This document shows positions 3,411 to 58,434 of a stretch of DNA of 64,000 bases, piece after piece; the first letter of the stretch is position 1, and each line of letters opens with the position of its first letter. The notes under the pieces are model-generated. The model worked only from the letters and a program-made list of their open reading frames with translations. It did no database searches and was not told the DNA's origin. Made by a program: the position numbers and the translations under genes. Origin of the DNA: Glaciozyma antarctica PI12. Lineage: Eukaryota; Basidiomycota; Microbotryomycetes; Kriegeriales; Camptobasidiaceae. The stretch lies in assembly GCA_002917775.1 (NCBI GenBank), contig KZ627147.1, forward strand, positions 166,226-230,225. Direction: 5' to 3'.

Positions 3411-5002
3411 TTACCCGCTACGCAGAGATTAATGTCAGCTCAGTCGTTGATGCGTGCGTTGCGAGTGACTCACGTTCGCTTGGAGATGTTGAGGAACCCA
3501 GTCCCGACACAACTCAGCACGTACTCCTCCGGCGCCTCAATCACCGCCTCTCCCGATTCGAGCTGCGCGGGCTCGCCAACAGCCACTGCGACGACAGGCT
3601 TGATCTTGAAGGTCGTTCCAAAGAATGCCTTGAGGTCGCGCAGGTACTGAATGCTGCAGACGAGAGAGCAAGACCGTCAGCCGCGCCTCCACCTTTGAAA
3701 GCGAGCAACGCACAAAGTCGCCTCAAGTGGACCTCCCACAGTCGCTCGTCCCACATCCTCTCCTCCTAGCACGAGCATCGTCGCCACGAGCCACTCCCAT
3801 CCGCGATCCACACACCCTCCTCTCCGAATCTCCGCCAAAAGCTGCCGCGCCGCCAGGATACCCAAGTCTTCCGGACTCGGTGGTGACCAAGTAGGTGCGT
3901 CCTTTTCGCCGCTGAGGGAAGGGTCGCCGGAAGGAGCGCAGGAAGTGGTTTCGGAGGAGTGGAGGACGTGCGAAGTCGAGGAGGCGAGGAGAGTGAGGGC
4001 GTAACCAGGAGATCTGCAGGGCGCCAAATCAGCAAAGTTCTCTCCCGAAAAGCTTTCGCGAGCTCACTTTCCACTGTCCTCGCCGCGGTAGACGTCGGTG
4101 TAGATGTAAACGTCGGGAATGTAGCGGTTCAGGACGGAGCGTGCTGCTGCGACCAGTCGATTTGAGAGTTGGGGAGATACGCGAACCGAGTGGCTGTGGT
4201 GCAAAGGTGTGAGTAGGAGGTCTTGTGTAGGCAGGGAGAGAAGGAAAGAACTCACGCGATACCACGGATCTTGCTCACGCGTCCGATGTTGGTGAAGTCA
4301 AAGCCGCTCTTGACCGCACGCACAGAGGGGCAGGTGAAGGTGACCTCTCCTCCTCCCAAAGGTGGGTGTCCACGCTTCGTTATCTGCAATAGCCCCGTCC
4401 ACAGTCAGCTCCCAAGGCCTGCGCTCCTCAAGAGCTCGCGAAACGCACCCGTAGCTCCAACCCCTCCTTCTCCAAGAACATGGCCAGATGCGGCAGCGCC
4501 GACGTCCTCAACGTGTCCACACTCGCGTCCCTCCCATTCGTCGTAACTCCCTTGAGCGTCAAGACGAGATCCTTCTTCCCAAACGGTGCAATCGCCAACA
4601 GCGGCTCCAAGAACCACCCAACGCTCCGGCTCAACGGGCACTGATGCGTAAAGGTCCCTCCTGCAAGCGTGCCTGGGTGGAAGAGGAGCGATGTACCCGT
4701 GTACGAGATCTCGACGCGGGAGCCCTCCGTGATCTTCTCCAGCAACCGAAGGAAGGAGACCTCGTACTCCTTCAGTCCCGGCTGGTCGTCGTCGGGACGG
4801 ATGCGATCTATCCGTACGGGCCGGCGGGAGAGGAGGGAGAGGACGAGGCGGTGACGGAGGGCGGAGTGGGAGGTGAACTGGAGGACGCGAGAGGAGGAGG
4901 AGGAGGGGCCGGCAGCAGCTGCTGCTGAAGACTTGGGGGCAGGCCTGCGCGCGAAGAGTTAGCTTGACCAGTTCCTGTAGCTGGTCTGAAGACTGCGTAC
5001 AT
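3411..5002 (-). CDS. RCL1: RNA 3'-terminal phosphate cyclase-like protein Rcl1
   Basis: Nucleolar endonuclease-type factor for 18S pre-rRNA processing, working with Bms1. Visible family blocks are RPDDDQPGLKEYEVSFLRLL, EKITEGSRVEISYTGTSL, GGGEVTFTCPSVRAVKSG, IRGIA, YTDVYRGEDSGK and LRDLKAFFGTTFKIKP. The cyclase catalytic His motif is not seen, as expected for Rcl1. The only usable start is split. AT at 5002-5001 is joined to G at 4944 by removal of a 56-nt intron (GTACGC...GCTAAC...GCGCAG), giving M-P-A-P-K-S-S-A. A second 56-nt intron (3473-3418) appears to precede a 7-nt terminal coding exon, so the protein ends ...NISKRTG. If that intron is retained, it stops at 3470 after ...NISKRT. Confidence 0.9.
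4945..5000 (-). other. Intron splitting the RCL1 start codon (AT|G)
   Basis: The donor GTACGC at 5000 directly follows AT (5002-5001). The branch site AGCTAAC and acceptor GCGCGCAG end at 4945, and the next exon begins with G (4944) CCTGCCCCCAAG. Splicing recreates ATG in the frame of the conserved protein. The unspliced RNA also shows an ATG at 5002, but it opens a different frame (MYAVFRP...). No other ATG lies in frame upstream of the conserved core. Confidence 0.85.
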
Positions 5003-5386
5003 CCTTTGCGAGGGCAGCTGAGGATGGGAGGGAGCTGAGAGAGGGGCCGGCCGATTCCAGAAAAAATGGATTGTGGCTCCGCCAGACAGGGCAGGGCCGA
5101 GGAGTTGAGTTCAGTCTCTCTCTTCATTTGTAGCTGTAGCTGGTACAACATTGGCAATATTCCGTACAGCTGCAGGTATAATAAGATCTTCCCCCCTCGG
5201 CCCCGAAGTCCAGTCCTCATTCGAACCCCACTCGGCGGACCGTCCCCCTGCCAGTGAGAACTCCCTCGCTCTCCGGAGGCAATAACCTCCTTCGATTCAA
5301 CAGCTTCGAGGTGTCCAGTGGTGAAGCAGAGCAGGGCGTCCACCTCAAACGGTCCCTCCTCCCGAGCTGCTCGTTCAGATGGGGTA

Positions 5387-6069
5387 TCCTGCGAACCAGA
5401 CGTCCATCCATCAGTTCTCTGCACAAAAACAGCGCGAATCGCACTTACATAGCTCCACGTACATCCGCGCAAGCGAGTCGAAGGCGATCAGGTCCCCACA
5501 TCGAAGGAGGTTTGCTGTTACCAAGACCAAGGGCATTCGTCAGCTCGTGCCTCGAGCTACCCACCTTTAACGCACCTGCATCCACGTTCAACGGAGAAGA
5601 AGGCTCTGGTGCTGCGAGGAGAGCCTGAACGGCCAAGCAAGCCGACGCCAGCGTCCAAACGGGCGACCACTGATCCTTGAGAATGTCCAAGCAGATCTCG
5701 CCCGTCTGCAGCGCCCGACGGGGTCAGCTTTCGTCCGTCGGGCCCTTTTGACTGCGTACCTTGAAGTTCACGTTAGGATGGAAGACGTGGCCCTTGAAGG
5801 CGATAGTGGGAGGGACGGCGGGGTAAGTTGCCGGGATGGTGATGAGGAGGGTGAACGTGTGCCCTGCGCGACAAGTCAGCAAGGCAGACAAGCACGCACA
5901 AGCTCTACTGACTAGCGTAAGGAGTATCGGGAGGTCCTTGTAGCTCTGCCGTCCACTCGAACAGGTCGTCGTCCGAAGTCGGGCCAAGTCGAACAAGACC
6001 AGAGGCGGATGAGGACCGCTGGAAGTCTGTGAGCTCAGAGAGCAGTCGTTTGGCGGTACGAGAGGACAT
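5387..6069 (-). CDS. PEX4: Peroxisomal ubiquitin-conjugating enzyme Pex4
   Basis: E2 enzyme that mono-ubiquitinates the import receptor Pex5 at the peroxisomal membrane for recycling. It starts MSSRTAKRLLSELTDFQRSS. E2 landmarks follow: FEWTAELQGPPDTPYAGHTF, the YPAVPPTIAF motif, GHVFHPNVNFKTGEICLDIL (active-site Cys in the last block) and DQWSPVWTLASACLAVQALL. The C-terminal SSPLNVDAANLLRCGDLIAF block is typical of Pex4 rather than Ubc4/5. Four short introns are inferred. The terminal intron 5448-5389 yields a stop codon split T|GA right after ...ARMYVEL. Without that splice, 12 extra residues would be added. It is transcribed divergently from RPN8, with 277 bp between the two starts. Confidence 0.9.
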
Positions 6070-6345
6070 TTTCCTGCAGCTAGCAGTTTGTGGACGAACG
6101 AGCAGTTGGTGGGGAGAAGGACAAGAGCATCTGGACGTCGGGCTCCCCTTTCGCCCCTCCTCCCGTTCCGACTCCGAGTCAGCTTCAACCCGACCTCAAC
6201 TCCCTCAGCACTTCTCCCAGTCTCAGAGCAGCAGCGAGAACAGCAGCACACGAGCTCACCACCTCCAGATCGACCAGCTCTCCTCTCCTCGCCCCTCCCC
6301 CTCCAAGCCGCGTCAGCGCTTTAGTCGCCAAGCCTCCAACCAACC

Positions 6346-8075
6346 AGTACGCAAACTACCTCCAGCGCCCTAAGAAGCACTCGCTAACACAGCCAAACCT
6401 CTCCCAGTGGCCTCCATCGACCCCATCGTTCACCTTTCGACAAACGTCGTCGTTCACCCTCTCGTCTTACTCTCGATCCAGGACCACGCAGCTCGAGCAG
6501 CCAAGGGAACAAAGAAGCGTGTGCTCGGTATCTTGTTGGGTCAGGATTTGGGCGTTAGGGGGATCAATGTGGCCAACTCGTTTGCTGGTGAGTAAGAGCA
6601 GAGGTGGTGGTTTGCTGGTGCGGCGAAGCGGGAGTACTGGCGCAGGCTTAGCCGGCAGAAGGATGTCAATGCGCGAGTGCTGCTGGCAACTGCTAAAGGC
6701 AACGACTGGGGCCAGTCTAGGTCTCGAGGAGGCACGCGCGATGGATCAGGCGAGCAGGCACTTTGGCTTTGCCAGGCGAGTTTGTGAGCAGAACGCGCAT
6801 CGTAGGGCTGGCGTCGAACGGAGGAGCAGTGGTCATATATGCCGGCACGTAGTGCTGTGTCTCCAGTGAGGCGTGAGCTTGCCAAGGCGTACTTTACGCG
6901 AGGGCAAGCTTCCAGCCAGTTTCGCGGCACGGGCACCCGAGCACGACTTCATACCAAGTCGACGAGCTAAGCTAACTACAACCGACTCCTCCACAGTACC
7001 GTTCGAGGAGGACGACAAGGACCCTCGAACCTGGTTCCTCGACCACAACTACATCGAGGCGATGAACGACATGTTCAAGAAGGTCAACGGCAAGTCCCTG
7101 CGCTCCGATAGCACGCAGGAGCTACGCTGACGCGGTCTGCTGCTACAGCTCGGGAAAAGCTGATCGGATGGTACCACACTGGCCCTAAGCTGCGCGCTTC
7201 CGATCTCGAGATCAACGAGGTCATTAAGCGCTACACCTCCAAGCCGGTCATGGTTATCGTCGATGTGCGGCCCGACAGCGAGCGAAGCGGCGGAGGAATC
7301 CCTACGGATGCGTACTTTGCAGTGGAGGAGATCAAGGACGTGCGTACACTGTCTCGTGTGGCGAGCTTACGCGACGATAGCTAACCCACTCTCGCAGGAC
7401 GGAACGGCGACGCTGAAGACTTTTGTGCACATCCCCTCGTCAATCGAGGCAGAAGAAGCCGAGGAGATCGGAGTCGAGCACCTCCTGCGCGACATCAAGT
7501 CTCTTGCCGTCGGCACCCTCTCCTCGCGCGTTTCGGACCAGCTCTCCTCTCTCCGCGGCCTCTCCTCCCGCCTGAACGAGATCAAGGACTACCTCGAGTC
7601 GGTCGTCAACGGAACCCTTCCTGTCAACCACCAGATCATCTACAACCTCCAGGACATCTTCAACCTCCTACCAAACCTCGACGCGGCGGAACAGGCGGGC
7701 GAAGGAGTCGGCGGACGCAAGCGACCTTTCACCGTCGCGACCAACGATCAACTCCTCGTCATGTACCTTTCCTCTCTCATTCGCGCCGTGATCGCACTCC
7801 ACGACCTCGTGAGTTTCGCTTTCTTTCTCCTCCCTATCCAGCCGCTGATCTCTCCGACGCAGGTGCTGAACAAGCAGGCTGGTGCGGCGGAGGGAAGTAC
7901 GGAGGAGGAGGTCGAGGAGAAGACGCCCGAGGAGCTCAAGAAGGAGGAGGAGAAGCGCAAGGACGAGGGACTTTCGGACAAGCAGAAGGCGGATGCGTGG
8001 TTTGCTGAGGGGGAGAAGGACAAGAAGAAGGACGAGAAGAAGGACGGCGAGGCAGGCGACAAGAAAGGGTTCTAG
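6346..8075 (+). CDS. RPN8: 26S proteasome regulatory subunit Rpn8 (MPN domain)
   Basis: Lid subunit that pairs with Rpn11. The start is split. A at 6346 is joined to TG at 6408 after a 61-nt intron, giving [20 protein letters not shown]. The MPN domain follows ([40 protein letters not shown]). The JAMM metal-binding His pair is absent ([13 protein letters not shown]), as normal for Rpn8. The second half has [20 protein letters not shown] and INYNLQD-like blocks ([16 protein letters not shown]). The C-terminus is a long Lys/Glu/Asp tail ([16 protein letters not shown]). Intron 2 is unusually long (6588-6996, 409 nt) and intron 3 is GC-AG (7090-7148). Convergent with the PP4 gene; 180 bp separate the two stop codons. 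Confidence 0.95.
6347..6407 (+). other. Intron splitting the RPN8 start codon (A|TG)
   Basis: Donor CCA|GTACGC, branch CGCTAACAC and acceptor CTCCCAG|TGGCC give a 61-nt intron. Only the A of the initiation codon lies in exon 1. The unspliced RNA has GTG, not ATG, at this place, so correct translation depends on splicing. The spliced context is CCAACCATGGCC, a strong initiation context. Confidence 0.88.
6588..6996 (+). other. Unusually long intron (409 nt) in RPN8
   Basis: It lies between ...VANSFA and VPFEEDDK, which are contiguous in all known Rpn8 proteins, so the whole stretch is intronic. The donor is GTGAGT, a branch-like GCTAAC sits near the end and the acceptor is CCACAG. Typical introns in this window are 48-70 nt. 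I see no clear C/D or H/ACA box pair in it, so no intronic snoRNA is called. Confidence 0.8.
7090..7148 (+). other. GC-AG intron in RPN8
   Basis: The exon ends ...AAGGTCAACG and the intron starts GCAAGT and ends CTACAG. The splice gives [17 protein letters not shown], the conserved Rpn8 sequence. The nearest GT donor breaks the frame. GCAAGT matches the known consensus of GC-AG introns. Confidence 0.88.
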
Positions 8076-8255
8076 TCGTGATTGAAACGTTGAAGCTGTG
8101 ACTAGACTCGGCGTTTGATTGAGGGAGCAGACTTGAGAGCGACCGACCCAGATCCGTTCCTCGCTCATGTCTCGTTCAAGCGGTGCTTTGGAATTAGGTC
8201 TACACACAAAAAGGGAAGCGGGGAGTAGCACAGTATACACCAGAGGAATGCCCCT
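8076..8255. other. Convergent 3' intergenic region of RPN8 and the PP4 subunit gene
   Basis: 180 bp between two facing stop codons. It must hold both 3' UTRs and polyadenylation sites. No gene is visible. Confidence 0.7.
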
Positions 8256-11200
8256 CTACCGCCTCGACACTTCTATAAACGCGTCCTCCCCCTCGAGCTC
8301 CCTCGTCCACAGCTGAGGTGACGGCCCCGTCGCTAGGACCTCTCCCGAAGGAGCCTCGAGCAGCACTCCCTCGTCCGTCATCTCGACGTCCTCCTCCTCC
8401 TCCTCCTCCTCCTCCTCCTCGCCGCACTCGTCGCCATCGGCCATCATCGAATCGTCGCGATTCAAGCACACGTCGTGCATCTCGTTATCGTCGTCGTCGA
8501 TTCCGTATCGAGGTCGAGCGGTCGTCCTCGCCAGCGGGATCCCTCCATCGGTCGTAGTCGAATCGTCGTCTCCGTACGTTCCCATCGCGCTCTGAGCGCC
8601 CGTACGATCGAGTCCTGACGGCGGAGGCGAGGGGGAGGGCTGGGGCTGGGGAGAGTCGGAGACGTAAAACTCGGCGATGGGGGCCTTGACGTCGCGGTCG
8701 TGCGAATGGGCGAGCGTGTGAAGGATGTTCTGGATGCGACCTCGCGAGCTTGGGTCGGCGTACAGCAAGACTGAGAGGAGCACGTCAGCAGTTGATCATG
8801 CGCAACGAATGGAAGGAGAGACGAACCAGATCGACACGCTTCACCAATAACCCTCGCGACACCAATCCTGACGTTGACGACGCCGTCTCGCGCGAGCCTC
8901 GACAGCACGTCGACAAAGTAGGCTTCGAAGGTCTCGCGCGACACTCCTCCTCGGACGGCGGCGAGCGCGCACGCTGTGTACGTCATGCGGTTACGGTAGC
9001 CTGAATCCTCGCTGAAGACGGAGAGGAAGGCCCAAATCTTGCTGCGAGCGAGGGCGTTGCCGTCGGTGGCGCTGAAGATGGCGGGGAGCTAGAAAGATGA
9101 ACACATCAGCAATCACCCGTGCATCGTAGAAGAAAAGAACGCACTGCGTAGACGGCCTGCTCTCGCACAGCGGCAACCCGATCCTTGAACGCCCTCGCGA
9201 GAACTCCCAAGACCTCTTCGGCAGCGTCAGAGATGACGAAGTGCGCGCCGAGAGTCGCCAAATCCTTCGCGACCGCCTCGCGTCGTCGCCAGTTCTTGAT
9301 CTCGCCCCAGTTCTCGGCGACAAGCTCCAGCGCGCGTTGCGCCGTTTCCGAGCCGAAGCAAAGCAGCAGCGTCGAAATGTTTTCGAGAACGGCGCCTTGG
9401 ATGTGATCGAAGTCGCGAAGGTACCAGGCGAACGGTTCGAGTAGGTAGGCGTCTGCTTGAGCGGGTCCGATGATCTTCGCAACCTCGTGGAGGGACGATG
9501 CGAGGCTCTGGCGGACCTTGTCGGCCTTGTCGCGACAGAGGGTGATGTGATAGGGCTGAAGGAGGTGCCACTGCTCGCGACCGACGGTGAGAGCGACTGC
9601 CGGGAAGTTGAAGGCGCTGCGAAGGCCGGTTCGTTAGTAGCGCACGACAGGGCTTGCGAAGACCGAAACGTACCACATGACTGGTCGATCCGGATCGCGC
9701 GCCGTTGCGAAAAGCGAGTTGTTGGGCGCCGAGGAGGGTCGTCCATCGTAGAAGGTTTCGGCGGGAGAGTCCAGAGCGCTTTGAAGAGGGGTAAAGACGT
9801 TGTCGGAGTGGTCGGAGGGGGTGACGGGGGTTTGACCGAGGAAGAAGGCGAGGAGGTCGTCTGGTACGCGATCTGGATTCCCGTGAAAGAGGTAGATGAG
9901 CTCGCCACAGACCTCGAGAGCGCCGCTCCGAACGTTGCGAGAGGCGTCGCTGCTGAAGGCCTTGATGTGGGCGACGACTTCGGCGCGAAGGAGAGGAGGG
10001 GGGAGGCGCTTGCAGATCTGGGGAAGGGCGAGGCAGGCAGCGCGACGAACGTGCCAAAGTGGGTCGCGGGCGAAGATTGCGTGCAGGGGAAGCTGCAGAA
10101 AAGGACGTATCAGCTATCCGCAGCCCAAGTCGTCGAGAGATCACGCACGATAGAGGACTCGAAGACCTCGAGCGGCAGCGTCCGTGCGAGGCAGCCTAAC
10201 GCCTGCACAGCCTCCTTCCGCACGTAGAACATCGTCTCGGATTTCATCCGATCGACCTCTGGGAGAATGTGCTGGACGAGGGCGTCCGGCTCGAGGCAGC
10301 CTGCCGTCGCGATGGCGGCGATGAGGCTCATGGAGACCATCTTGCCGATCGCCGACTCCTCGTCTCCTTGACCGTCGGGCGAGAAAGCTGAGTACATCGG
10401 TTCCGCCGGCGACGATTCGTTGATCCCGTGCGAGTACTGGTCCATCTTCGGGTGGTCGAGTCCGTCGTCAAAGTAGGAGACGAGGGGTTCGCCCCAAGCC
10501 TCCGCTGTTGGTCCAGGCGCCGTCTCGTGAAGCGCTCCGCCCGCCGCGAGCCAGCCATCGTCGAGTTGGTCGTCGGTCGGGGCTGAGGACGAAGGACGAG
10601 TACGGCCGATCCTCGTCGCTGCGAACCGACGAGCTTCCAGGAGGACTGCTCGCTCGCTGCGAATCATCCTCGAGACCCTCCATGCCCTTGTCGCCGTCTC
10701 GCTCCTCGTCGTCCAGTCGAGCGAGTCCGAGAACGATCCCGGTGACGAATTCGTCCTCGAGGACGCGACAGGCATCAGGGCTGAGATGGTACGGAGGGTG
10801 CTGGTGGGAAGAGGAGGCGAAGTCGGTATGAGGGAGGGGAATCGTTGGGAGGTCGAAGGAGAAGTTGGCGGGAGAGGAGGGTTCGGACCCGGGAGGAAGA
10901 GGTGTCCCTTTGAGGCGACAGAGGAAGCGGACGAGCGACGCTTGAGTTGACTTGGCGACGATCGTCGACTGGTCGGTGAGGAGCGCCCCAAGAAGGCTCG
11001 TGAACGTCGTCGCCGAGATTCGAGGGACGTCCGAAACCTCCGTGTTGGACGGAGACGTCTTCGAGGTCGAGGGAGGGGTGAAGATAGATCCCGATTCGTC
11101 GGAATGGAACTGAGTTGATGCGGGGGAGGGCTGCGTGAGATTGGGGAGGGGAGTGTAGCGGGAGGGGACGGGAGATCCGGCTGGCGAGGCGTCCGCCGTC

Positions 11201-27592: not shown

Positions 27593-29790
27593 TCAGGCGT
27601 TCATGTTGGCCTGCGGGAGGTGGTGAATTAGCCGAGCTGAGACGGGGAGGAGCAACGGGGACGCACAAAGGAGAAACCGCCTTGAGGCGCTGCGACGTCG
27701 GAACTGAAGGTGAAGGCACCGCTCTGGTCGACCTGGGCGTCCTGAATTCCAGTCTCCTCGTCCTCGGGGTAGAACGTATCCATGAGGTGGAAGCACTTCT
27801 TGTAGATCTGCGTGCGGCGCGGCAAATCAGCTCCCCCGCCCTCGTAACGAATCGACGAAAAGCGAGAACGCACCTCGAGGTTCTCGTGGTGCTGCAAGTT
27901 GTGGATCGAGACCATTCCTCCAGCCTCCTCGACGAAAAGCGCATACTGGTTGACACCTCCCGATGCCTCCTTGTCCGCCTCTCCGACCTTGAGGATGTTC
28001 TCGAGTCCGTCCAAAGCGACCTGAATGATCTTGTTGTCGGTACTCTTGAGCAAGTCACACAGAGGCTTAATGCAGCCCTGCGAGACGAGGTAGCGAATCT
28101 GACTCGGCTCCTGGAGTCCTCCACTGGTCGCGTTCGACATGGCCCAGCACGCCTCCTTCTTCGTCTTGAAGTCGGCGTTTTGGAGGATGTTGATGAGGGG
28201 AGGGATGATGTTGGCGTCGATCACGGCCTGGATCTGCTGAGGGCTACCGGCGGTGATGTTGGAGACGGTCCAGCACGCCTCCTTGCGGATGCCTTCCTTG
28301 GGCGACGAGAGGAGGGAGAGGAGGGCGGGGAGGGCGCCCGAGGCGAGAACGACTTGGGTTTGGAGGTCGTCGCCAGTGACGATGTTGCCGACCGAGCGGA
28401 GAGCGGGAGTCTGAACGGCAGTCGAGTGGTGCCTGCGTGGGCGTAGGTCAGTGCAAGCTCGAAGGGACGCAGTGCAGGCACGAACATGAGGAGGTCCACC
28501 AGGCGGCGAACGACGCCCGACTCGATGACGGCCTGAATCTTGTCGGAGGAGCCGTCGGAGAGGTAGGAGATGGCCCAGCACGCATCGATTAGGACCTCGT
28601 CGTCGAGAGAGTAGATGAGCTTGGTGAGGACGGTGAGAGCGGGGGAGATCTGCGAGTCGTAACGGCGCCCAGTCAGCTCCGACGTTTACTCCTCTCCGCA
28701 CACACGACGAGAGAAACTGAACGCACAAGCTCCCAGTTGGGCTGAGGGTTCTTGCCTCGGCAGAAGTTGCTCAGAGTCCACGTAGCGTTCCTGAGCATGC
28801 TGATCTTGTGGGGCTCGTTGAGGAGGGAGAGGAGAGGACGGAGGGCGCCCTGCTCGAGGACGTAATCGCGGCACTTGGGGCTGTCTCCAGCGATGTTGCC
28901 GAGAGCCCACACGGCCTGTTCGCGGACGTCGAGGACGGGGGAGGAGAGGAGCTCGATGAAGACGGGGACGGCGCCAGACTCGATGACGACCTGAGTGTGC
29001 TCCGAAGTGCCGGAAGCGATGTTGGTGAGAGCCCAGGCGGCCTCGAACTGGGGAGAGGAAGGGAGTCAGTTTGGAGGAACGACCGGGGCGGCCGAGGTTC
29101 AACGCACCTGGATCATTGAGTGCTCGTTGCGGAGGAACTCGACAAAGCGGGCGACGACGCCGCACTCGATGACCTTTTCGATAGGAGGGTTGCGCTCCTT
29201 GGAAAGGAGCTTGCGGAACTTGGTGGTCGCGTCAAGCTGCTGATCAGGCTGGTCCGAGAAGACGCCCTGGATCATGGCCGGGAGCTGCTCCTGCCACACG
29301 CATAGCCCATCAGCTTCCCTCCTCCTCGCTCGCTAGCCAAGCCGACAAGAAGAACGTACGGCGGCATCGACTCCTCCGTCGTCGTCCGATTCTCCTCCAC
29401 TGGCGGCACTGACAAAGTTCCTCCTCTTGGCGACACTCTCCTCGCGCTTCTGCTTGCGAATCTCGACCTGAGCCTCCTCGCGGCGCCTACGAAGCTCTGC
29501 AGAAGGACGAGTGGCGTAGGTTAGCGAAAAGGCGCGATGGGGCAGGTGGAAGGGTCGGAGCGCGGTGCCTCGGCGGGGGGAGGGGAGTGGGCTGAGTGAA
29601 TTACCCTCCTGACCGAAGATGCCCTTGTTCTTGTATGCGGCCCGTCGGGATCTGTAGCGCGCGGAGAGGAGTGTTAGGGAGTAAGTCTGGGTCGCTAAGA
29701 GTGGAAAACTTGCGCTGGTGCTTGACGCTCAGACACTGCAAACGCGGGGGTTAGTCGAGAGCTACGTTGGCGTACTCGAGTCTACTCACT
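27593..29790 (-). CDS. SRP1: Importin subunit alpha (karyopherin alpha)
   Basis: Nuclear import adaptor that binds classical NLS cargo and importin beta. The start is split. A at 29790 is joined to TG at 29735-29734. After a second, GC-AG intron the N-terminus reads [18 protein letters not shown]. The importin-beta-binding domain ([20 protein letters not shown]) is followed by about ten ARM repeats with the usual Asn/Trp ladder (for example [60 protein letters not shown]). The acidic tail with [20 protein letters not shown] ends GGFSFANMNA. About 530 residues. It diverges from the PARP gene across 323 bp. Confidence 0.94.
29652..29713 (-). other. GC-AG intron in SRP1
   Basis: The exon ends GCACCAGC, the intron begins GCAAGT and ends GCTACAG, 62 nt in all. 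Only this donor links the MSERQAPA exon to [10 protein letters not shown] in frame. Using the nearby GT (GTTTTC) gives the wrong phase. Confidence 0.83.
29736..29789 (-). other. Intron splitting the SRP1 start codon (A|TG)
   Basis: Donor AATCA|GTGAGT, branch CGACTAACC and acceptor TTTGCAG|TGTCTGAG define a 54-nt intron on the minus strand. Splicing gives ATGTCTGAGCGT, the MSER start common in fungal importin alpha. Without splicing there is no ATG in this frame. Confidence 0.87.
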
Positions 29791-33279: not shown

Positions 33280-33610
33280 TGGTCGTTTTCGTCGCTTGAG
33301 GGGGAGGGTTTGCAGTTCAGTTCAAGTCGTTTTCAGTGTTTATTCTCGTTGTTCCTGTTCAAAGTAGAAATGACTCTTAAAGCGAACGAGAGAAGAGAAG
33401 AAAAGGGTTCGGCCAGCGAGAATTTCACCAGCTGAGTTGACCAACATTTCCCACTCTCTCACCTCCCAGCGCCTCCTCCCTCCCCTCCCTCCGCCCTCCC
33501 TCGCCTCCACCCTCCCCCCCTACCAAACCACAAACACGTAAGCCCCCTTCCTCCCTCCTCCGACCCTCCCTCCGCCGCACCTCGCTGACCGCGCTCAACG
33601 GCTCACAGAA
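33280..33610 (+). promoter_or_regulatory. ATP18 promoter and leader intron
   Basis: About 330 bp, pyrimidine-rich. A donor (CACAAACAC|GTAAGC) near 33539 and an acceptor CTCACAG ending at 33608 with a CTGACC branch form a 5' leader intron. It stops 2 nt before the ATP18 ATG. Confidence 0.6.
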
Positions 33611-33854
33611 ATGGCTTTCCTCGGTATGCGCTCCTGGGGCACTCCCTTCCTCCGCCCCATGTGGCCCTTCATGGTCGGAGGCGCCATCACTTTCTACGGA
33701 GTTGCGTTCGCGCAAAAGTCCATGTTGGCCTGTACGTCCCCTTTCTCTCTAGTGGTGGATAGACGGGTGGGATCGGACTGACTGGGATTGTGTAGCGCCT
33801 ACGTATGCGAACGACCCTAAGAACCCTCACAAGAGTACGGTCGCGGCGCACTAG
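33611..33854 (+). CDS. ATP18: Mitochondrial F1Fo ATP synthase subunit i/j
   Basis: Small Fo membrane subunit. Two coding exons read MAFLGMRSWGTPFLRPMWPF, then MVGGAITFYGVAFAQKSMLA, joined to SPTYANDPKNPHKSTVAAH. The pattern of TP-L-P-WPF, one transmembrane helix and an NDP-NP motif near the end is that of Atp18. About 59 residues, the usual size. The intron (GTACGT...TTGTGTAG) interrupts the Ser codon. The ATG lies 2 nt after a leader-intron acceptor. Confidence 0.88.
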
Positions 33855-36690: not shown

Positions 36691-38874
36691 AGTACGCCCC
36701 CCCTCCCTCCTCATCCCACCTCACTAACCCCCTCCACAGTGTCAACCCCCTCCGCACCCCCTCCCCCCCCACCCTCCGACGTCCCTAAACCCACTCCCGA
36801 AACCGACTCCACCTCCTCCGCCGTCGTCGTGGATGGAGACGTCAAGATGGAGGAGATGAAGGAGGAGGAGACGCTGCCGGAGGAGATATTGGGAGCGACG
36901 GCGGAGGAGATCATGACGAGGGTTAGACTCATCGACAATGATTTGAAGGTGAGTGTGTCGTGGGTTGGTGAGGGTGCGAGGGAGGGTGCGAGGGAGAGGG
37001 GAGAGGTGGTGGGGAGCTGGGTGAAGGCGGGCGAGCGTGCGGGGAATGGCGGTCGAGGTGGGTTGGGAGGAGCACGTCGACGGAGGTCTTGCGCTGGGTC
37101 GTCAGCGCGTACCGGCAGCGAGTGCAGCCCACGCTCGCAGGCTACGCTGGGCTAAACTGGAAAGCCTGGCTTTGCCGTGGATGCTGCTGGTGCCCGCGCA
37201 CGCTGGGGACGAGGGCTGGAGCAGGAGCACCGCGGGCTGGTCCTCTCGGCGAACGGGTCAGGATCACGCTGGCAAGCTCTGGGAGCCACTGCACACGACT
37301 GATGGCATGTATACGACTGTGAGGGGAGAGGAGCGGCACCAGAACCAGGACAAACCCAAGAACGACGGCTAACTCGCGAATTGCAGGTCATGCGATCCGA
37401 GAACATGCGATTGAACCACGAGCGATCCAAGATGATGGAGCAGATCAAGGACAACACGGAGAAGATCAAGAACAACAAGCAGCTCCCCTACCTCGTCGGC
37501 AACGTCGTCGAGGTGCGCCCCTCCCTCCTCCTTCCCTCACCACCTCCTAACCCCCGCCGACGCAGATCCTGAACATCGACCCAGACGAGGACGAGTCGAA
37601 CGAAGGCGGCAACGTCGATCTTGACGCTCAGCGCAAAGGCAAATGTGCCGTCATCAAGACCTCGACTCGCCAAACCATCTTCCTCCCTCTCATCGGCCTC
37701 GTCGCTCCCGAGCAACTCAAGCCCGGAGACCTGATCGGCGTCAACAAGGATTCGTACCTCGTTCTCGATACGCTACCGGCTGAATACGATTCGCGCGTCA
37801 AGGCGATGGAGGTCGATGAGAAGCCTACCGAGACGTACACGGACATTGGAGGACTCGATAAGCAGATCGAGGAGCTCGTGGAGGCGATCGTGCTTCCCAT
37901 GAAGCAGGCGGAGAAGTTCAAAAGTCTCGGAATCAAGGCGCCCAAGGGAGCTTTGATGTACGGTCCTCCTGGTGCGTCCGCTTTCCTTTGACGGCGGTGG
38001 ACAGAGGCTGACGAGTGGTACAGGAACGGGAAAGACTCTCCTCGCACGAGCTTGCGCCGCTCAATCTGGCGCCACGTTCCTCAAGCTCGCCGGTCCTTCG
38101 CTCGTCCAGATGTTCATCGGAGACGGCGCCAAGCTCGTGCGAGACGCGTTCGAGCTCGCGAGGGAGAAGGCTCCTACGATCATCTTCATCGATGAGCTCG
38201 ACGCGATTGGAACCAAGCGGTTCGATAGCGACAAGAGTGGAGATAGGGAGGTGCAGAGGACGATGCTGGAGTTGCTTAACCAGCTCGATGGATTCGGGAG
38301 TGATGATCGGATCAAGGTGCGTCTGTGACCTGGTTTGTGAGGAAGGGAGCTGATGGTGAGGGCAGGTTATTGCGGCGACGAACAGGATTGATATCCTCGA
38401 CCCCGCGCTCCTGCGATCAGGGCGACTGGATCGCAAGATCGAGTTCCCCCTGCCTACGGAGGAAGCTCGCGCGCGTATCATGGAGTGAGTCTGCGCTATC
38501 CTTCTTGCTTCCACAGGTGCTGACGTCGCCTCGCGCAGGATTCACTCGCGCAAGATGCAGGTTAGCGGCAAGGTCAACTACGACGAGCTGGCGCGGAGTA
38601 CGGACGAGTTCAACGGAGCTCAGCTCAAAGTGCGTCCGTTCCCAATCCGCGCTCTTGACCATCGCTGACTTGTGCACGCGCAGGCGGTGTGTGTCGAGGC
38701 GGGAATGATTGCGCTCCGAGAAGGGAGCAAGCAGATTGGGCACGAGCACTACCTTTCTGGAATACTCGAGGTGCAGGTACGTTCTTCCTCGGTCGTTCTG
38801 TGGATCGCGAACGATACTGACAATCTCGTTGCGCGCAGAGCAAGAAGAAGAACGACCAGTTCTACTTTGCTTAG
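36691..38874 (+). CDS. RPT5: 26S proteasome regulatory ATPase Rpt5
   Basis: AAA+ ATPase of the 19S base. The start is split. A at 36691 joins TG at 36740, giving [21 protein letters not shown] coiled coil follows ([20 protein letters not shown]), then the OB domain. The AAA domain has [20 protein letters not shown], Walker [14 protein letters not shown], Walker [15 protein letters not shown] and the sensor/Arg-finger region [20 protein letters not shown]. The tail ends [12 protein letters not shown]. The last three residues are Tyr-Phe-Ala, so the penultimate Tyr of the HbYX gate-opening motif is Phe here. One intron (36949-37386) is 438 nt and all others are short. Confidence 0.95.
36692..36739 (+). 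other. Intron splitting the RPT5 start codon (A|TG)
   Basis: Donor CACCAA|GTACGC, branch CACTAACC and acceptor CTCCACAG|TGTCAACC give a 48-nt intron. Splicing produces ATGTCAACCCCC. The unspliced RNA has GTG at this point. Confidence 0.87.
36949..37386 (+). other. Unusually long intron (438 nt) in RPT5
   Basis: It lies between [10 protein letters not shown] and [10 protein letters not shown] inside the conserved coiled coil. The donor is GTGAGT, the acceptor TTGCAG, with GGCTAAC near the end. The sequence is G-rich at its start. No coding frame or snoRNA box set was recognised. Confidence 0.8.
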
Positions 38875-51175: not shown

Positions 51176-51454
51176 GCTGCCGCTGCTTCTTGCGAGGGCC
51201 AGGAGGATAGGAACGCGGAGGAGAAAGCAAGCAGGGCAGCAAACGAAGCTGGTGATCAAAAGATCTGCTGTTCGATCGCGTCCCGCATGTGAGACAGCTC
51301 AACCTTGTCCTTGCGCTCTCTCTCCTCCTACGAGCAGAACGAGACGAGTCAGGTGAGCAGGAAGAAGATGCGAGGGGTTGAGGCAAAGGAAGCAAGGACA
51401 CGGCTCAAGTTTCCAGTCCCGCCTGCTTCTACACACGCCAACCATCTCTCGCGT

Positions 51455-54400
51455 TTCTGCACCGGGAAGAGGTCAGCGACTGCCTCCGCACAGGAAAGCG
51501 AGAGAGAGACGCACAGGTAGGCTTGTTCTTGGCGTTGTTCTGGCGACGAGAAACAGGTCAGCGAAGAACGCAGAGTTCGGCAGCGAAAACGACCGCACGA
51601 TGATGAGATCCTTGTACGCCGAGACGTCTCCGTAGAACTTCTCGCACTTCTGGTCGGCACACTGTAGCGTAGAACAGGATTAGCGGAGTTCTTTGCGGGG
51701 AAGGGGCGGCGACGCACGACCCAGAGCTCGTTGCAGACGCTGCGAAGGGAGGATCAGTCGCTTGAGCTCGAGACGCGCGAGCGGGAACGTACTTGTGAAT
51801 AAAAGTAGAGTCGTGAGAGATGACGATAACTGCGAGAATACGGTTCGTGAACGATTCGGAAGCGAGACGCAGGGAATCCTACCTCCGCCGTTCCACACCT
51901 TCAAAGCCTGCACATCGAAATCGTCAGCTCCGGCGCTGTGAAGCGACGACGAGAGGCACTCACGTCCATCAGAGCGTCGAGACCCTCGATGTCCAAGTGG
52001 TTCGTAGGCTGAGCAACGAACCATCATCAGCTGAAGCAATCTCTAAATGTGCCCGGCGACTCACCTCATCGAGCAGCAGGATGTGAGGCCGTTGAAGCGA
52101 GAGCGTCGCGAACGAAACACGACTCTTCTGTCCTCCCGACAGCGTCCCGATAAGCTGCAATCCCGTCATACCCTGTCACCCCCTCATCAGCTCTCTTCTT
52201 CAATCCCAGCGCGGAATCCGCTCACCGTAATCCCAAACGCTCCCAAGTGCTGCCGGTACTCCTGGTCCGTCTTGCCCGGGAACATCTTCTGCAAGAACGC
52301 AACGCTGTTGAGCGTCAAATCGAGTGAGTCGATGTGGTGTTGCGCAAAATCTGCTCTCAGCGCGTCAGCGAGCGAAGAGTTTGAAGGAGGAGGGTACGCA
52401 CAGGCGATGCGAAGACGACCGTTACGGGATTGCTGGCCGTGAGTAGGCGAGATCTCTCCGATAAGAAGCTTCATCCTACGCTCTCCAGCATCAGTAACTT
52501 CTCCCATCCGCACGAGCGACGAAACCGAACGCACAAGGTGGATTTTCCCGCTCCGTTCGCACCAATGATCGCGAGCCGCGAATCCAGTCCGACGTCGATG
52601 TTGACGCCCTTGAGAATCGGCTTCTCCTTCGTGTACCCGAACGAGACTTCGGACAACTGCAAGAGCGGCGGCGAGATCTTATCGCAGTCTTGGAACTTGA
52701 ACTTGACGATGTCGTCTTCCTCTGGTGGCTCGAGCTCGGGAAGCTTCTCGAGAACCTTGATCTTGGACTGAGCCTGGGCGGCGCGGTTGGCGTTGTCTGT
52801 GAAGAGGTCAGCGAGGGTGGGGTGGAGGAGGGGAGGGGACGAACAGCGCCAGCGGTCGATGAAGGCCTGGAGATGAGCGCGGAACTGAAGCTGAGCCTCG
52901 TACTCGCGCTTCTGGTTCTTGGCGCGCTCCGACTTGGTAGCGTAGAACTGCTTGAAGTTTCCTGCGTCGTCACAGTATCAGTTCTGCTTCTTCGCTGGCC
53001 GAGAGAGGAGTAATGCGGACGGACCCTTGAAGTAGTCGAGACGCTCGCTGTGCTGGTACACGATATCGGTCGCGACGGCGTCGAGGAAAGCTCGGTCGTG
53101 AGAAACGACGAGGAGGGTACCGGGCCAGGTCTGGAGGTAGTCTTCGAGCCAGGCGAGAGCGTTGAGATCCAAGTTGTTCGAAGGCTGCGAGGGGTGAGGT
53201 TAGCGAGTTGCCGTGGTAGGTATGACGGTAGCGCACCTCATCGAGGAGAAGAAGATCGGGCTTGCAGAAGAGTGCTGAGGGCGAAGATGATTAGCGTGAA
53301 GCGAGGGAGGTGCCGTTGGGACGAACCTCGTGCGAGCGACAGTCGCATCCTCCATCCTCCAGAGAACGCACGCGTAGGCATGTCCTACCACACAACCATC
53401 AGCTCTCTCCCCCACACGCATCTCACTGAAAGCACGCACCTGATCCGAGGCCGAGAACCCAAGTCCCGCCAACAGCTCCGCCGCCCTACTCGGTCCACTA
53501 TCCGCATCAATCTCGACCAAAAGCTGCTGCACCTCTCCAAGCCTCGCCGTCGCATCCTCCGTCTTGCGATTCTTACTCGCCGCCACTCCCTCCTCGGCCT
53601 CCTTGCCCTCCGCCACATCCTTCGCCTCGACATCCTCCATGGTTTGAAGAACGGCGTTGAGCTCCTTCTCCTCTGCGAGGAGACGAGTGCGGTGGACGTC
53701 GGCTTGTAGGACGGATTCGATGGCGAGAGTGTCGTCGCCGATGACTTCCTGTGCGGAGCGGGGTTAGCTGGAAGTTGCCAGCTTTGACGGGGGAGAGGAG
53801 ACGGACCTGCTGCACGAAGAGAATGGAGAGGTGGGAGGGGATGGCGACTTCTCGGAGAGCCATGGCGCGGAGGAGGGTCGACTTTCCGATACCTGGAGAG
53901 CGGGGTTAGGATGATCGTGAGTGACGGAGGCCGCGAAAGGCGGACCGTTGCGACCGATGAGACCGTAGCGGCTGCAAAGAGTGCACGTCAGCTGCCGTAG
54001 ATAAAATAGCAGGAACTGGGACTCACCGACCCTCGGCGAGCGTGAGAGTAGCGTTGGAGAGGATGCGCAGAGATCCAAACGACAAGTCGATTGCCTCCAA
54101 TTGAATGTCTTTGCTCTTTCCCTTGTTGGCAGAGGCCAGCTGGAGCGGGTTGACCTCGAGGAAGAGCTCCTCGTACGACTTCTGGCCTTTGTTGGCGTCC
54201 ATCAGCTTGGAGCCCTCGTATGCTCCCCTCCTGTCCCTCTTCTCCATCTTTGCCCTGATCTTGGCCTCGGCCTTTTCGAGCGCCTTGAGGTTGACCTGCG
54301 TATCGCGCGCTTTCACGACGGAAGCGATGTCGACCACCTGCGTGACGGTCTGCTTCTTGGAGAGGTGCTCCTGCCGACGCATGTCGAGGACCTTGTCGAG

Positions 54401-54652
54401 CTTTGCTGGGCCAGTCGAGCGGGTTCCACCAGTTTGAACATCCCAAAGAGACTGGAGGGAGGCGCAGATCGAGTCGACGTCGTCCTGGGGGAGGGATTCG
54501 GACTCGAGGAGAGGGCGGATGAAGGACTCGACGGGTTCGTCGTCGGCGTCGGAGGCGTCTGCCCAGAGGGACGTAACGTAGTCGATGATAGGCCAGTCGA
54601 GCTGGGATTGATTAACTGCTGCAAAGGCAGCGTTGAGGATCTCAGCTGCCAT
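51455..54652 (-). CDS. GCN20: ABC-F ATPase Gcn20/ABCF3
   Basis: Translation-linked ABC-F protein that helps Gcn1 activate the kinase Gcn2 on uncharged tRNA. It has no membrane segments. The N-terminal ABCF3-type region (MAAEILNAAFAAVNQSQLDW, RRQEHLSKKQTVTQVVDIAS) precedes two ATPase cassettes. Cassette 1: LIGRNGIGKSTLLRAMALRE and LLLLDEPSNNLDLNALAWLE. Cassette 2: AIIGANGAGKSTLMKLLIGE, TLSGGQKSRVSFATLSLQRP and LLLDEPTNHLDIEGLDALMD. The linker has RWRYNANRAAQAQSKIKVLE. The protein ends INNAKNKPT, with a stop codon formed across an intron as T|AA (51515 and 51456-51455). More exon-like sequence lies just downstream. It diverges from TIF34 across 311 bp. Confidence 0.93.
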
Positions 54653-54963
54653 CGTCGTTGACTTGGAGAAGCAAGAGAGCGCGAAAGCTGAGCGGAGTCG
54701 ATTTACTCTCGGAGTCGGAGTTCGTTTCTTGTCCCTCTTTCGAGCTCGTTCGACTCCAGGGAGCGTTTCAGTCTATCTACAAGGATTGGTACGGCGCTGG
54801 GCTGCGCTCCTTTAAACGCGTTCAAACGAGTCTGAGTCGACAGCGCAGTGAGGTATTCGATTTAATTAACGCGCAAGTGCAGGTACTTGGGCACTAACAA
54901 ATAAATCGGACAAAGCTCTGCTTCTCCGTGGCCCAAGTCGAGGTTGAGCTCCTCAAGTCAATC
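54653..54963. promoter_or_regulatory. Bidirectional promoter of GCN20 and TIF34
   Basis: 311 bp between two head-to-head translation genes. The middle has A/T-rich bases (TTTAATTAACG near 54860, AACAAATAAATC near 54896). No TATA box placement is obvious and no other gene is seen. Confidence 0.55.
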
Positions 54964-56586
54964 ATGGCAAGTCAAGCAGGACAGAGACTACCACCAGAGC
55001 AACAACTAACTCCCCCCCTTACGATCCCACAGCGTCCCATCCTCCTCTCCGGCCACGAGCGATCCCTCACTCGCAAGTCTTTCACTTCTCCATCCGCACC
55101 TCTCCAACACCCGAGCTAACCACGCCGTCGCGCCCTTCGCAGAGATCAAGTACAACCAAGAAGGCGACCTCCTCTTCTCCGCGTCCAAGGATCACGTTAT
55201 CAACGTCTGGCACTCGCACAACGGAGAACGACTCGGCACCTACGATGGTCACAACGGAACCGTCTGGAGTATCGACGTGGACTGTGAGTCTGGCGTTTCC
55301 ACATTATCAACAGGCCAAGGAGTGGGGGTGGAGTGAAAGGGGGAGGACGCACTGGGAGGGAAGCAGGAACAGGAACTGACGAGACCCGCGTGTGCAGCTA
55401 CCTCGACCTACCTCGTCTCTGGCTCAGCAGACAACATGATGAAGCTCTGGCTCGTCCGAACAGGCGAGTGCCTCAAGACCTGGGAGTTTACCACGGCCGT
55501 GAAGCGCGTCGCATGGAGTGAGGACGACTCCAAGGTGCGTTTATTCCCTTTCTCCCTTCCTCAGAAAAGAGGGCGGGAAGCTGATCTGGATACGCGAGCG
55601 CAGGTGCTGGCGGTGACGGAGCAGAGGATGGGATACCAGGGCGCTGTTCGCGTCTTTGAGATCAACCGGGAAGGAGGCGAGCGTGCGTCTTCAGCACTGG
55701 GAGGAGGGGAGGGAGCTAACGGCGTGAATACAGACGCCACGGAGCCCCTCTTCACCATCACCCCTGGAGGATCAGCGAATGGAAAGGCGACTGTCGCGGC
55801 GTGGACAGCATTGGACCAGTTCATCGTCACCGGGCACGAGAACGGCAAGCTCAACCTCTGGGATATGGTGCGTTCAGCAGCTTGTGGGGATGCAGGGATG
55901 GGAGCTGATGCGCGTACGTCGGATAGGACGGAGAGCTTTTCTACGAGAAGGAGGACAAGGCACACCTCGAGCCCATCACCGACCTCCAGATGTCTCCCGA
56001 CGGAACCTACTTTGTCACCTCCTCAAAGGACAAGAGCGCCAAGGTTCGTGCCTCCTTCCTCTCATCTACTTTCGCTAAACCTTGGAGGACAGATCTGGTC
56101 CGTCGGCCCCGACATCAGCTCGTCAGGCGAGGAGGACTACCTAACCCTCATCAAGACGTTCGCTGGCGAAACCGCTCTCAACTCGGCCGCTCTCATCCCC
56201 GGAAAGCCCTACGTTCTCGTCGGAGGAGGACAGGAGGCGATGGCGGTTACTACGACGAGCGCACGGCAGGGAGGGTTCGAGATTCGCTTCTGGCACCGCG
56301 TTTTCGAGGAGGAGGTCGCGAGGGTTAAGGGTGGTTTCGGGCCTTGTAACACGTTAGTCCCGCTCTCTCGCTCTTTTGGTGGGATGAAGCTGATGAAGAG
56401 GGTAGGATCGCGGCGCACCCGCAATCGAAGGGGTACGCGATCGGAGGAGAGGATGGATACGTGAGGGTGCACCAGTACGTTCTTCCCGCTCCCCGTTCGC
56501 ATGAGGAGGAAGCTGAATAGGGACACAGTTTCGACGACGACTTCTTCACCATGAAGCCGTATGGGAACTTGGAGCCGGAGGATTAG
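54964..56586 (+). CDS. TIF34: Translation initiation factor eIF3 subunit i
   Basis: Seven-blade WD40 subunit of eIF3. Exon 1 encodes only the Met. ATG at 54964-54966 is followed at once by a GC-AG intron, then [13 protein letters not shown], and after a second GC-AG intron [22 protein letters not shown] blocks: [92 protein letters not shown] and [19 protein letters not shown]. It ends [13 protein letters not shown]. The conserved MRPILL start and TQIKYN junction fix both unusual introns. About 340 residues, the normal length. Confidence 0.94.
54967..55032 (+). other. GC-AG intron directly after the TIF34 start codon
   Basis: ATG|GCAAGT ... ACTAAC ... CCCACAG|CGTCCCATC, 66 nt. Splicing gives [12 protein letters not shown], the conserved eIF3i start. 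If unspliced, the ATG opens MASQAG..., which does not match the family. Confidence 0.88.
55073..55142 (+). other. Second consecutive GC-AG intron in TIF34
   Basis: CTCACTC|GCAAGT ... GAGCTAAC ... CTTCGCAG|AGATCAAG, 70 nt. It restores [15 protein letters not shown], as in other eIF3i. The nearby GT (AA|GTCTTT) gives the wrong frame. Confidence 0.87.
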
Positions 56587-57082
56587 AGTTAGAGTATAGG
56601 TGTAGTGCAGCCAAAACTCTCGGAATGCAGCGAGAGCTTGTTAGCCGACTTCCTGATGGGGATCTGGAGGGGTGGAGAGAGTGGCTTGGAGCTGTGCTGC
56701 TGAGGAGAGAGGCTGGTTCCCTCTGAGGAGATTGGAGGAGAGAGCGCGACGTAACAACCGCCGTCTCTTCTTCTTCCTCCTCTCCCTCCTCGTCTACAAG
56801 GTATGTCCGCGTACAACAGCAGGTGCAGAACCCGAATGGGCCCAGGTTGCGCTCCACTACTCGCGTCGCCGTGGAGCTGCAGTCGCGCGTTGGTGGATCT
56901 TCGGAGATGCTTCTTCGCGAGCTGGCCGTCGCACGTTAAGCGGACGGCGCGGCTGGAGTGAGAAGGTGGGACGGCGTGGACGGCGTCAAGCTGGCAGCAA
57001 ACGCTGCTCTCCAGGGAGACAGCAATCACACCTCGCGAGGAGCGCAGGACGGAGCTGACCTCTCGCTTTCGCCGACTCACAG
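56587..57082 (+). promoter_or_regulatory. Spacer between TIF34 and the TPR gene
   Basis: 496 bp on the same strand. A leader intron seems to end CTGACC...GACTCACAG exactly at 57082, so the next base is the A of the TPR gene's ATG. No other gene is supported. A long minus-strand frame here is Arg/Ser-rich shadow sequence. Confidence 0.5.
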
Positions 57083-58434
57083 ATGGACGCCACGACGCTC
57101 AAGAACCTCGGCAACACGGCTGTTCACGAGCAGAAATGGTAAGAAGCGCTGGAGCACTACATGCAAGGCCTCGCGCTCCATTCCAAAGACCGAAGCTGCT
57201 GCTGCTCTCCTCTCGAACCGCTCGTTGTGCTACGTCAAGTTGGGACAGTTCGACCTTGGTGCGTTTGCCTGGGGAGGTACAGAGATGGGAGATGCGGACT
57301 TTGATGGAGGGCAGCTCTCGTGGACGCTTCGGCGGCATGCAAGCTTCGACCTACCTGGAGCCGGAGTGCAGCTCGGATGGGAGAAGCCTACGCGCATCTC
57401 CAGAGCTTCGCTACCGCCTATTCCCACTGTACGCTACTTCTCCCCCTTCCTATGACGCGCAAACTAACCTCCGCCCGCCTGCAGACGTCCAAGCCGGTTG
57501 TCTTGCGGAGGACGCCCCTACTCGCGCTCGCTACGCCCAAGCTGCAACGCTCATGAAGACGCGCGCTGCTGCCATCGAGAGCAAAGGACCTGATTCGCCT
57601 TATATGAAGGTTGCGCGGCGAGAGGATAACTGGATCACGAGGCTTGCGGCGCTGAGAAGGACGGGGTTCGTCGTCGAGCGCGGATCGGCGGTGGAGCTTT
57701 CGGTGTGGTCGTATGAGAAGTGCGAGAGGGGGATGAAGTTGATTGATGATAACCTCACGTTCATCGGGGACCAGATGGCTAGCAATTACCGCACCTCTGC
57801 GTTCGAGGATTTGTGCGGTACGTCTCTTGGTTCTCCTCTCTCTAGCTGCCGACATTCGCTGATGATCAGGGCGCAGATTCGATCATGATGGAACGCAACA
57901 CCGGCTTTCACATTCCTTACGGAAAGGACCACGCTCGCCCTCTCACGTTCAAGATCCCTCAGCAATACGCGTTCGAGCTCACGCAGTGGAAGACGATCGA
58001 GTTCCTCAAGCCCGTCTGGACGAGCAAGACGATCATCGCCAAGTTCGACAAGCAGAGGCGCGAGGACAGTCAATCCGAGTGCGTTCAAGTCCCCTCCGCA
58101 CGCTCGGGGACCCATCGAGCCGATCTGTGAGCATTCTCTCCTCTCCTACTCTCAACCCTTCGCTAATCTATTCGACGCAGACTCGCGCCAGGATCTCAGC
58201 CAGCTCGAGAGCTTCGTCTTCTCGCGACTCCAGTGCGACGGACTTCGGAACTGGCTCGAGACGCCCGCGGGGAGTGCGCCGGACGCGCTCGAGTTCGTCG
58301 TGAAGCCAGTACCGGAGGTGGACATTCGGACGTGTCCTGCGGGGACGAACTACTCGGCTATCATCAGCCAGAGCTTCTGGATGTCTTTGCCTGGACAGGT
58401 TGGGCTCGTTGATATGAAGGGAGATATGAAGTAG
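57083..58434 (+). CDS. TPR-domain protein with an interrupted first exon
   Basis: It starts MDATTLKNLGNTAVHEQKW, the first helix of a TPR array. The same frame continues EALEHYMQGLALHSKD, but only after an in-frame TAA at 57140-57142. The array then resumes one base out of frame as TEAAAALLSNRSLCYVKLGQ. Downstream exons are intact: ALVDASAACKLRPTW, MGEAYAHLQSFATAYSHY, and a long unrecognised C-terminal domain (FVVERGSAVELSVWSYEKCE, TGFHIPYGKDHARPLTFKIP, LEFVVKPVPEVDIRTCPAGT) ending GLVDMKGDMK. A stop plus a one-base shift within about 55 bp suggests sequence error or recent decay. No intron with normal size explains it. Confidence 0.65.

What the first reader, a model, noticed from the sequence alone, without database searches (positions are those of the whole stretch)
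4944..57085. Introns cluster at the start codon across unrelated genes
Four genes (RCL1, RPN8, SRP1, RPT5) have the ATG itself split. TIF34 has an intron directly after ATG, the TPR gene has one ending directly before ATG, and ATP18 has one ending 2 nt before. That is seven of about 27 genes, on both strands, all in conserved cellular genes. Chance placement of introns should rarely hit the three start-codon bases. The pattern suggests either a bias for intron gain at AUG contexts (A|GT, AT|GT) or selection for splicing-dependent creation of the start codon. I am not aware of this being described as a general feature of this lineage.
Basis: partly seen in the sequence, partly recalled or inferred. 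Interest (0 to 1): 0.9.

Follow-up and report, generated by a model that had tools for sequence, protein, structure and literature searches.

The report
Introns that split the start codon
In this yeast-like fungus several conserved genes have an intron inside the ATG start codon, more often than chance would give, so that RNA splicing completes the start signal; the habit is known from one distant yeast but looks little described in intron-rich fungi.

Summary
A gene model trained on this genome (264 kb: the window plus 200 kb of another contig) recovers RCL1 (AT|G), RPN8 and SRP1 (A|TG), TIF34 (ATG|) and ATP18 (intron ending 2 nt before ATG) with posterior 0.95-1.0. RPT5 (A|TG) was rebuilt by hand; a relative's protein shares its first ten residues. 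The TPR case is doubtful: its frame is broken.
The excess lies INSIDE the codon, not beside it. Of 99 genes, 8 split ATG (7 if a tandem pair, one a dubious 18-residue model, counts once); 1.2 are expected given exon-junction preferences (P 4e-5; 3e-4). Introns directly before or after ATG are at chance. Simulations without such introns gave 0 false calls in 392; decoy triplets averaged 0.83.
Proto-splice bias is not supported: A|TG is the least favoured site yet the most enriched. Selection for a splicing-completed start is my favoured mechanism, but one direct test did not discriminate. Yarrowia has 47 genes whose first coding exon is only the A of ATG, and phase-0 start-codon introns are widespread: a new variant of a known kind. 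No RNA-seq was available.

The parts
4944..5002 (-). RCL1 start: AT (5002-5001) | intron 5000-4945, 56 nt | G (4944)
   Evidence: posterior 1.0; A at -3; log-odds 10.9 nats over best unsplit parse
6346..6409 (+). RPN8 start: A (6346) | intron 6347-6407, 61 nt | TG (6408-6409)
   Evidence: posterior 0.97; N-terminus matches Microbotryomycetes relatives; log-odds only 3.4 nats
29734..29790 (-). SRP1 (importin alpha) start: A (29790) | intron 29789-29736, 54 nt | TG (29735-29734)
   Evidence: posterior 1.0; yeast SRP1 aligned from query residue 5 to its residue 12
33538..33613 (+). ATP18: 5'UTR intron 33538-33608, 71 nt, ending 2 nt before ATG 33611-33613 (no excess shown for this class)
36691..36741 (+). 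RPT5 start: A (36691) | intron 36692-36739, 48 nt | TG (36740-36741)
   Evidence: hand-built; same first ten residues as a Phenoliferia RPT5
54964..55032 (+). TIF34 (eIF3i): ATG (54964-54966) | intron 54967-55032, 66 nt, GC donor (no excess for this class)
   Evidence: residue 1 aligns to residue 1 of solved eIF3i
56801..57085 (+). TPR gene: possible intron ending directly before ATG 57083; frame broken at codon 20; not counted
   Evidence: donor position judged by eye

Best explanation
These are ordinary short spliceosomal introns (median 56 nt, GT/GC-AG, CTRAY-like branch site) that sit inside the initiator codon of conserved genes more often than placement by density and junction sequence allows. 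Shown (by computation on DNA and protein comparison): the introns, their exact positions, and an excess confined to A|TG and AT|G. Inferred: selection keeps introns there, or lets start codons settle at existing junctions near the 5' end, because an unspliced transcript then cannot start the proper protein. With A|TG the initiator does not exist before splicing; with AT|G the same AUG runs into the intron. The intron would act as a splicing check on translation at the first codon.
For: Density at nt 1-2 of ATG is 8/198 (0.040 per nt) against 0.0067-0.0073 at nt 4-30 and 0.0010 in the 30 nt upstream. Junction-weighted: A|TG 4 seen, 0.30 expected, P 2.7e-4 (5 with RPT5, P 1.6e-5); AT|G 4 seen, 0.91 expected, P 0.014. 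Unseen 200 kb: 5 of 76 genes, 0.93 expected, P 0.0027; 4 if the tandem pair counts once, P 0.015. Specific to ATG: 8 calls against a mean of 0.83 and a maximum of 4 (CAG) over 60 decoy triplets. False calls in simulation: 0 of 392. Starts supported by relatives' N-termini for RPN8, RPT5 and the epsin-like gene. A at -3 in 8 of 8 called split starts (by eye; Kozak is part of the model score; RPT5 has C). Retaining the first intron alone stops the normal product in 8 of 9 split-start genes, RPT5 included. Genes with start-adjacent introns are more codon-biased (n 10 vs 86, P 0.005), in line with the high expression of start-codon-intron genes in Yarrowia (PMC13309789, passages).
Against: No RNA-seq, no ribosome profiling, no gene structures of relatives. 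The 264 kb are 1.3% of the genome; 8 cases, two of them tandem paralogs, the second a dubious 18-residue model with gene posterior 0.70. The retention test does not discriminate: in controls with a contiguous start and first intron at nt 4-120, 36 of 44 also lose the normal product, and in the epsin-like gene retention of the A|TG intron still lets an in-frame ATG make 377 of 396 residues. AT|G alone is weak (3 independent, P 0.065) and leaves the AUG in unspliced RNA. Twelve proteasome-type genes called in 13 merged loci show no split start. Four of eight calls beat the best unsplit parse by only 3.4-4.6 nats; the one at block offset 154582 has no protein check.
Confidence: 0.4

Rival explanations
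1. Intron gain bias: new introns insert preferentially at proto-splice-like sequences and the ATG region happens to offer them.
For: AT|G sites have above-average junction weight, 1.59.
Against: A|TG has weight 0.53 yet the largest excess; ATG| (2.39) and |ATG (1.93) have the highest weights and no excess.
Confidence: 0.1
2. Neutral acceptor capture: a 5'UTR intron ending just before ATG acquires, by one point change, an acceptor inside the start codon; if its upstream exon happens to end in A or AT the spliced mRNA still carries ATG. No benefit is needed.
For: Possible precursors exist: three introns end 0-2 nt before ATG in 99 genes. A single-step path is conceivable for both classes (inference). 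In Yarrowia 5'UTR introns often end directly upstream of the start codon (PMC13309789, passages). The retention test shows no special property of split starts.
Against: 5'UTR introns are scarce here (3 within 1-30 nt upstream plus 2 directly before ATG in 99 genes), so the pool looks small for 7-9 conversions unless conversion is one-way.
Confidence: 0.27
3. General 5' bias of introns, for example through intron-mediated enhancement or 3'-biased loss, with the start codon merely being near the 5' end.
For: Fungal introns lie nearer initiation codons than null distributions (PMC8476143, passages); intronic promoters work in Rhodotorula (PMC5124236, passages); codon bias.
Against: The rise is sharp: 0.040 per nt at nt 1-2, 0.010 at nt 3 and 0.0067 at nt 4-12; general 5' enrichment within the CDS is about 1.5-1.7-fold (0.0073 at nt 13-30 against 0.0044-0.0051 beyond nt 240; 0.0039 at nt 481-960).
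Confidence: 0.13
4. Artefact of gene modelling: junction ATGs picked up by chance where the true start lies elsewhere.
For: No transcripts; the model was trained on the same DNA; four calls have modest margins.
Against: 0 of 392 false split starts in simulation; decoy mean 0.83; relatives' N-termini support RPN8, RPT5 and the epsin-like gene.
Confidence: 0.1

Closest known systems
Start codon introns of Nielsen and Wernersson 2006 (PMC1626468; abstract, passages and the Discussion section read)
   Same: Excess of introns at the start codon in conserved genes of vertebrates, arthropods, fungi and plants.
   Different: Theirs is a phase-0 peak between codons 1 and 2; [quoted passage not shown]
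Yarrowia lipolytica start-codon introns (PMC2911113 and PMC13309789; passages read)
   [quoted passage not shown] introns peak at the start codon, with high splicing efficiency and expression; ATP-biosynthesis genes are enriched among intron-bearing genes.
   [quoted passage not shown] this is an intron-dense basidiomycete (6.8 predicted CDS introns per gene) with introns spread through genes and a step only at ATG.
Intronic promoters of Rhodotorula toruloides (PMC5124236; passages read)
   Same: Related red yeast, about 6 introns per gene, interest in first introns as enhancers; first intron of FAS1 and LDP1 lies in the 5'UTR.
   Different: No split start codon is mentioned in the passages seen.

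Membership tests
U2-type spliceosomal introns | GT/GC-AG ends, branch-site motif, typical length | tested here: met
   GT donors (30 of 672 GC), CTRAY-like branch site, mostly CAG, median 56 nt; the nine model-called start introns are 48-72 nt
Phase-0 start-codon introns (Nielsen and Wernersson) | Intron between codon 1 and codon 2, phase 0, in excess | tested here: not met
   1 seen, 1.38 expected in 99 genes; single instances exist (TIF34; two firm and one uncertain among 12 proteasome-type genes)
Yarrowia-type A|TG introns | First coding exon is only the A of the initiator | tested here: met
   RPN8, SRP1, RPT5 in the window; two more in the sampled block
Yarrowia-type A|TG introns | Splicing confirmed by cDNA or RNA-seq | not testable with these tools
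   no transcript data held
Splicing-gated initiation (selected) | Unspliced RNA makes no proper protein, more so than for other introns | tested here: inconclusive
   normal product lost in 8 of 9 split-start genes and in 36 of 44 controls; TIF34 (ATG|) keeps its frame when the intron is retained

The most novel reading that the evidence does not exclude
In Microbotryomycetes several percent of genes (hundreds genome-wide if the sample holds) have initiator codons completed only by splicing, kept by selection as a first-codon check that lets only spliced mRNA be translated; the same solution arose independently in Yarrowia.
Probability: 0.27. Interest if true: 0.75.

Novelty: new variant of a known kind. 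Interest (0 to 1): 0.52.

Why it matters
[quoted passage not shown] It offers a clean, testable case of splicing gating translation. In practice, gene finders that do not allow split start codons would mis-start several percent of genes in such fungi.

Tried and rejected
Genome-wide pattern counts: calibrated locally, a donor-branch pattern fits about 46% of predicted introns (326 of 703) and the counts did not separate ATG junctions from others, so no genome-wide count was run (the one own-genome pattern gave 2 matches and was uninformative). Wider family sampling (DnaJ, Ras, LSM, UQ_con, adh_short) returned places but no DNA, so none of those genes enter any count. Donor strength of start introns: slightly weaker, P 0.12 over all, 0.04 without GC donors; not relied on. 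Fold prediction and RNA-family searches were not used. Rejected: lumping |ATG, ATG| and -2 introns into the claim; counting the TPR gene.

Kept apart: proteasome loci (13 merged loci, 12 with a called proteasome-type gene, L028 with none) are outside the 99-gene statistics; RPT5 enters only where stated; the tandem CsbD-like pair is given both ways. The RPN8 query was cut to its first 303 residues.
Full report
What was done. The window lies in a 20.0 Mb, 18-contig genome (window GC 59.8%). RPN8, RPT5 and an epsin-like protein have their closest fungal matches mostly in Microbotryomycetes (Phenoliferia, Pseudohyphozyma, Leucosporidium, Microbotryum, Rhodosporidiobolus, Rhodotorula; class membership recalled), so 'red yeast lineage' is about right. 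No transcripts and no related fungal genomes were available. I wrote a semi-Markov gene model (coding Markov chain, donor, acceptor and branch-site matrices, intron lengths, Kozak matrix) that gives every nucleotide of 5'UTR, start codon and CDS the same prior chance of an intron, and trained it on the window plus C1:300001-500000. It converged on 99 genes and 672 CDS introns: 6.8 per gene, median 56 nt, donor GTRMGT-like, branch GCTRAC-like, mostly CAG acceptors.

The seven cases. Five are recovered directly (RCL1, RPN8, SRP1, TIF34, ATP18). RPT5 was truncated by the model because of a 438-nt second intron; by hand the A|TG intron 36692-36739 gives an open frame through to the conserved body. 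The Phenoliferia protein begins with the same ten residues. The solved chains do not decide alone: a start at the downstream in-frame ATG (residue 37) would leave 2-4 residues ahead of the aligned block, where the three best chains have 11-24. RPN8: 40 of the 42 relatives printed (of 120 listed) begin with Met within about 21 residues of the [VI]HPLVLL block, as the spliced product does; P0151 and P0157 have longer predicted N-termini. TIF34 aligns from residue 1. SRP1 aligns from residue 5 to residue 12 of yeast SRP1. RCL1 and ATP18 had no protein check. The TPR gene has a stop at codon 20 and a later frame change and is set aside.

Is it more than chance? CDS introns per nucleotide: nt 1-2 8/198 = 0.040; nt 3 1/99; nt 4-12 0.0067; nt 13-30 0.0073; nt 31-240 0.0053-0.0057. 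In the 30 nt upstream of ATG the density is 0.0010. With the rate of nt 4-120 (0.00582) and the genome's own exon-junction preferences as weights (|ATG 1.93; A|TG 0.53; AT|G 1.59; ATG| 2.39), expected against seen in 99 genes is: |ATG 1.11 vs 2; A|TG 0.30 vs 4 (P 2.7e-4); AT|G 0.91 vs 4 (P 0.014); ATG| 1.38 vs 1. Adding RPT5 makes A|TG 5 (P 1.6e-5). Counting the tandem CsbD-like pair once makes AT|G 3 (P 0.065) and the total 7 (P 2.7e-4); the second copy is an 18-residue model with gene posterior 0.70. The P values are Poisson and treat genes as independent.

Replication. It holds 5 split starts in 76 genes (0.93 expected, P 0.0027; 4 and P 0.015 with the tandem pair once): an A|TG epsin-like gene, an A|TG gene of unknown identity, an AT|G gene resembling ATP-synthase subunit f, and two tandem AT|G CsbD-like genes, plus two |ATG genes including a RACK1 homologue (these names are recalled from sequence, except that the epsin-like gene is named). 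For the epsin-like gene 19 of the 23 relatives printed (of 120 listed) have the same spacing from Met to the conserved lysine of the KQA block, one of them with KAA and two with an insert just after it; four have a shorter N-terminus. Proteasome loci, an extra sample, give 12 proteasome-type genes: two firm and one uncertain ATG| intron and no split start, so the split class is not universal in housekeeping genes.

Controls. Posterior sampling gives expected counts of 4.17 A|TG and 3.72 AT|G in 110.6 expected genes. Letting the split start be any other sense triplet gives 0.83 on average over 60 triplets (maximum 4, CAG), against 8 for ATG. Simulated DNA with 400 genes, introns anywhere except positions 0-3, gave 0 split starts in 392 called genes (upper 95% bound 0.76%). 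Forbidding split starts costs 3.4-15.1 nats per gene; the weakest are RPN8 (3.4, but supported by relatives), the block gene at 154582 (3.4, unchecked), the ATP-synthase-like gene (4.4) and the epsin-like gene (4.6, supported by relatives). All 8 called split starts have A at -3 (by eye), though Kozak context is part of the score; RPT5 has C at -3.

Mechanism. Junction sequence preference cannot explain A|TG, the least favoured of the four sites and the most enriched. A broad 5' bias does not readily explain a step confined to two nucleotides. What remains is something tied to the initiator itself. Keeping only the first intron and splicing the rest, the first AUG (with 60 nt of leader assumed) gives a product that ends at the normal stop in 1 of 9 split-start genes (the epsin-like gene, 377 of 396 residues, from an in-frame internal ATG), RPT5 included; in 44 controls with a contiguous start and first intron at nt 4-120 it does so in 8. 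The difference is in the expected direction but far from telling, and TIF34's ATG| intron keeps the frame (367 residues). So loss of product on retention fits a splicing check but is not special to split starts. Genes with start-adjacent introns are more codon-biased (P 0.005, 10 vs 86, genes of at least 240 nt, reference set all genes). Neutral capture of the start codon by the acceptor of a 5'UTR intron is the best rival.

What is known. [quoted passage not shown] PMC2911113 reports 47 Yarrowia genes whose first coding exon is only the A. A 2026 study (PMC13309789) finds Yarrowia introns concentrated at the start codon, those near it with the highest splicing efficiency and expression. PMC8476143 reports introns closer to initiation codons than null distributions in the fungi it studied. 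My searches of the open library listed no report for Microbotryomycetes, but most subscription papers are not held and I read only the papers named here. Hence: a new variant of a known kind, supported on 1.3% of one genome, awaiting RNA-seq.

Noticed in passing
window 57083-57260 (+): TPR gene frame broken: TAA at codon 20 and TPR-like residues continuing in another frame; assembly error or decayed gene.
   Followed up: partly
window 6588-6996 and 36949-37386 (+): RPN8 and RPT5 both carry unusually long second introns (409 and 438 nt against a median of 56).
   Followed up: no
window plus C1:300001-500000: GC donors in 30 of 672 predicted introns (4.5%), above the 0.58-1.14% for gc...ag reported across organism groups in PMC1626468; some may be model errors.
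   Followed up: no
L009, block offsets 80181 and 81400: Tandem CsbD-like genes (name recalled) share an AT|G intron, so the split start may predate the duplication; the second model is only 18 residues.
   Followed up: partly
L036/L038, L039; L022, L023, L034: Two proteasome-type genes have firm ATG| introns; three others have a first intron 7-14 nt into the CDS.
   Followed up: partly
relatives P0246 and P0250: Two deposited epsin-like proteins have an insert after KQAS that looks like a retained intron near the N-terminus.
   Followed up: no
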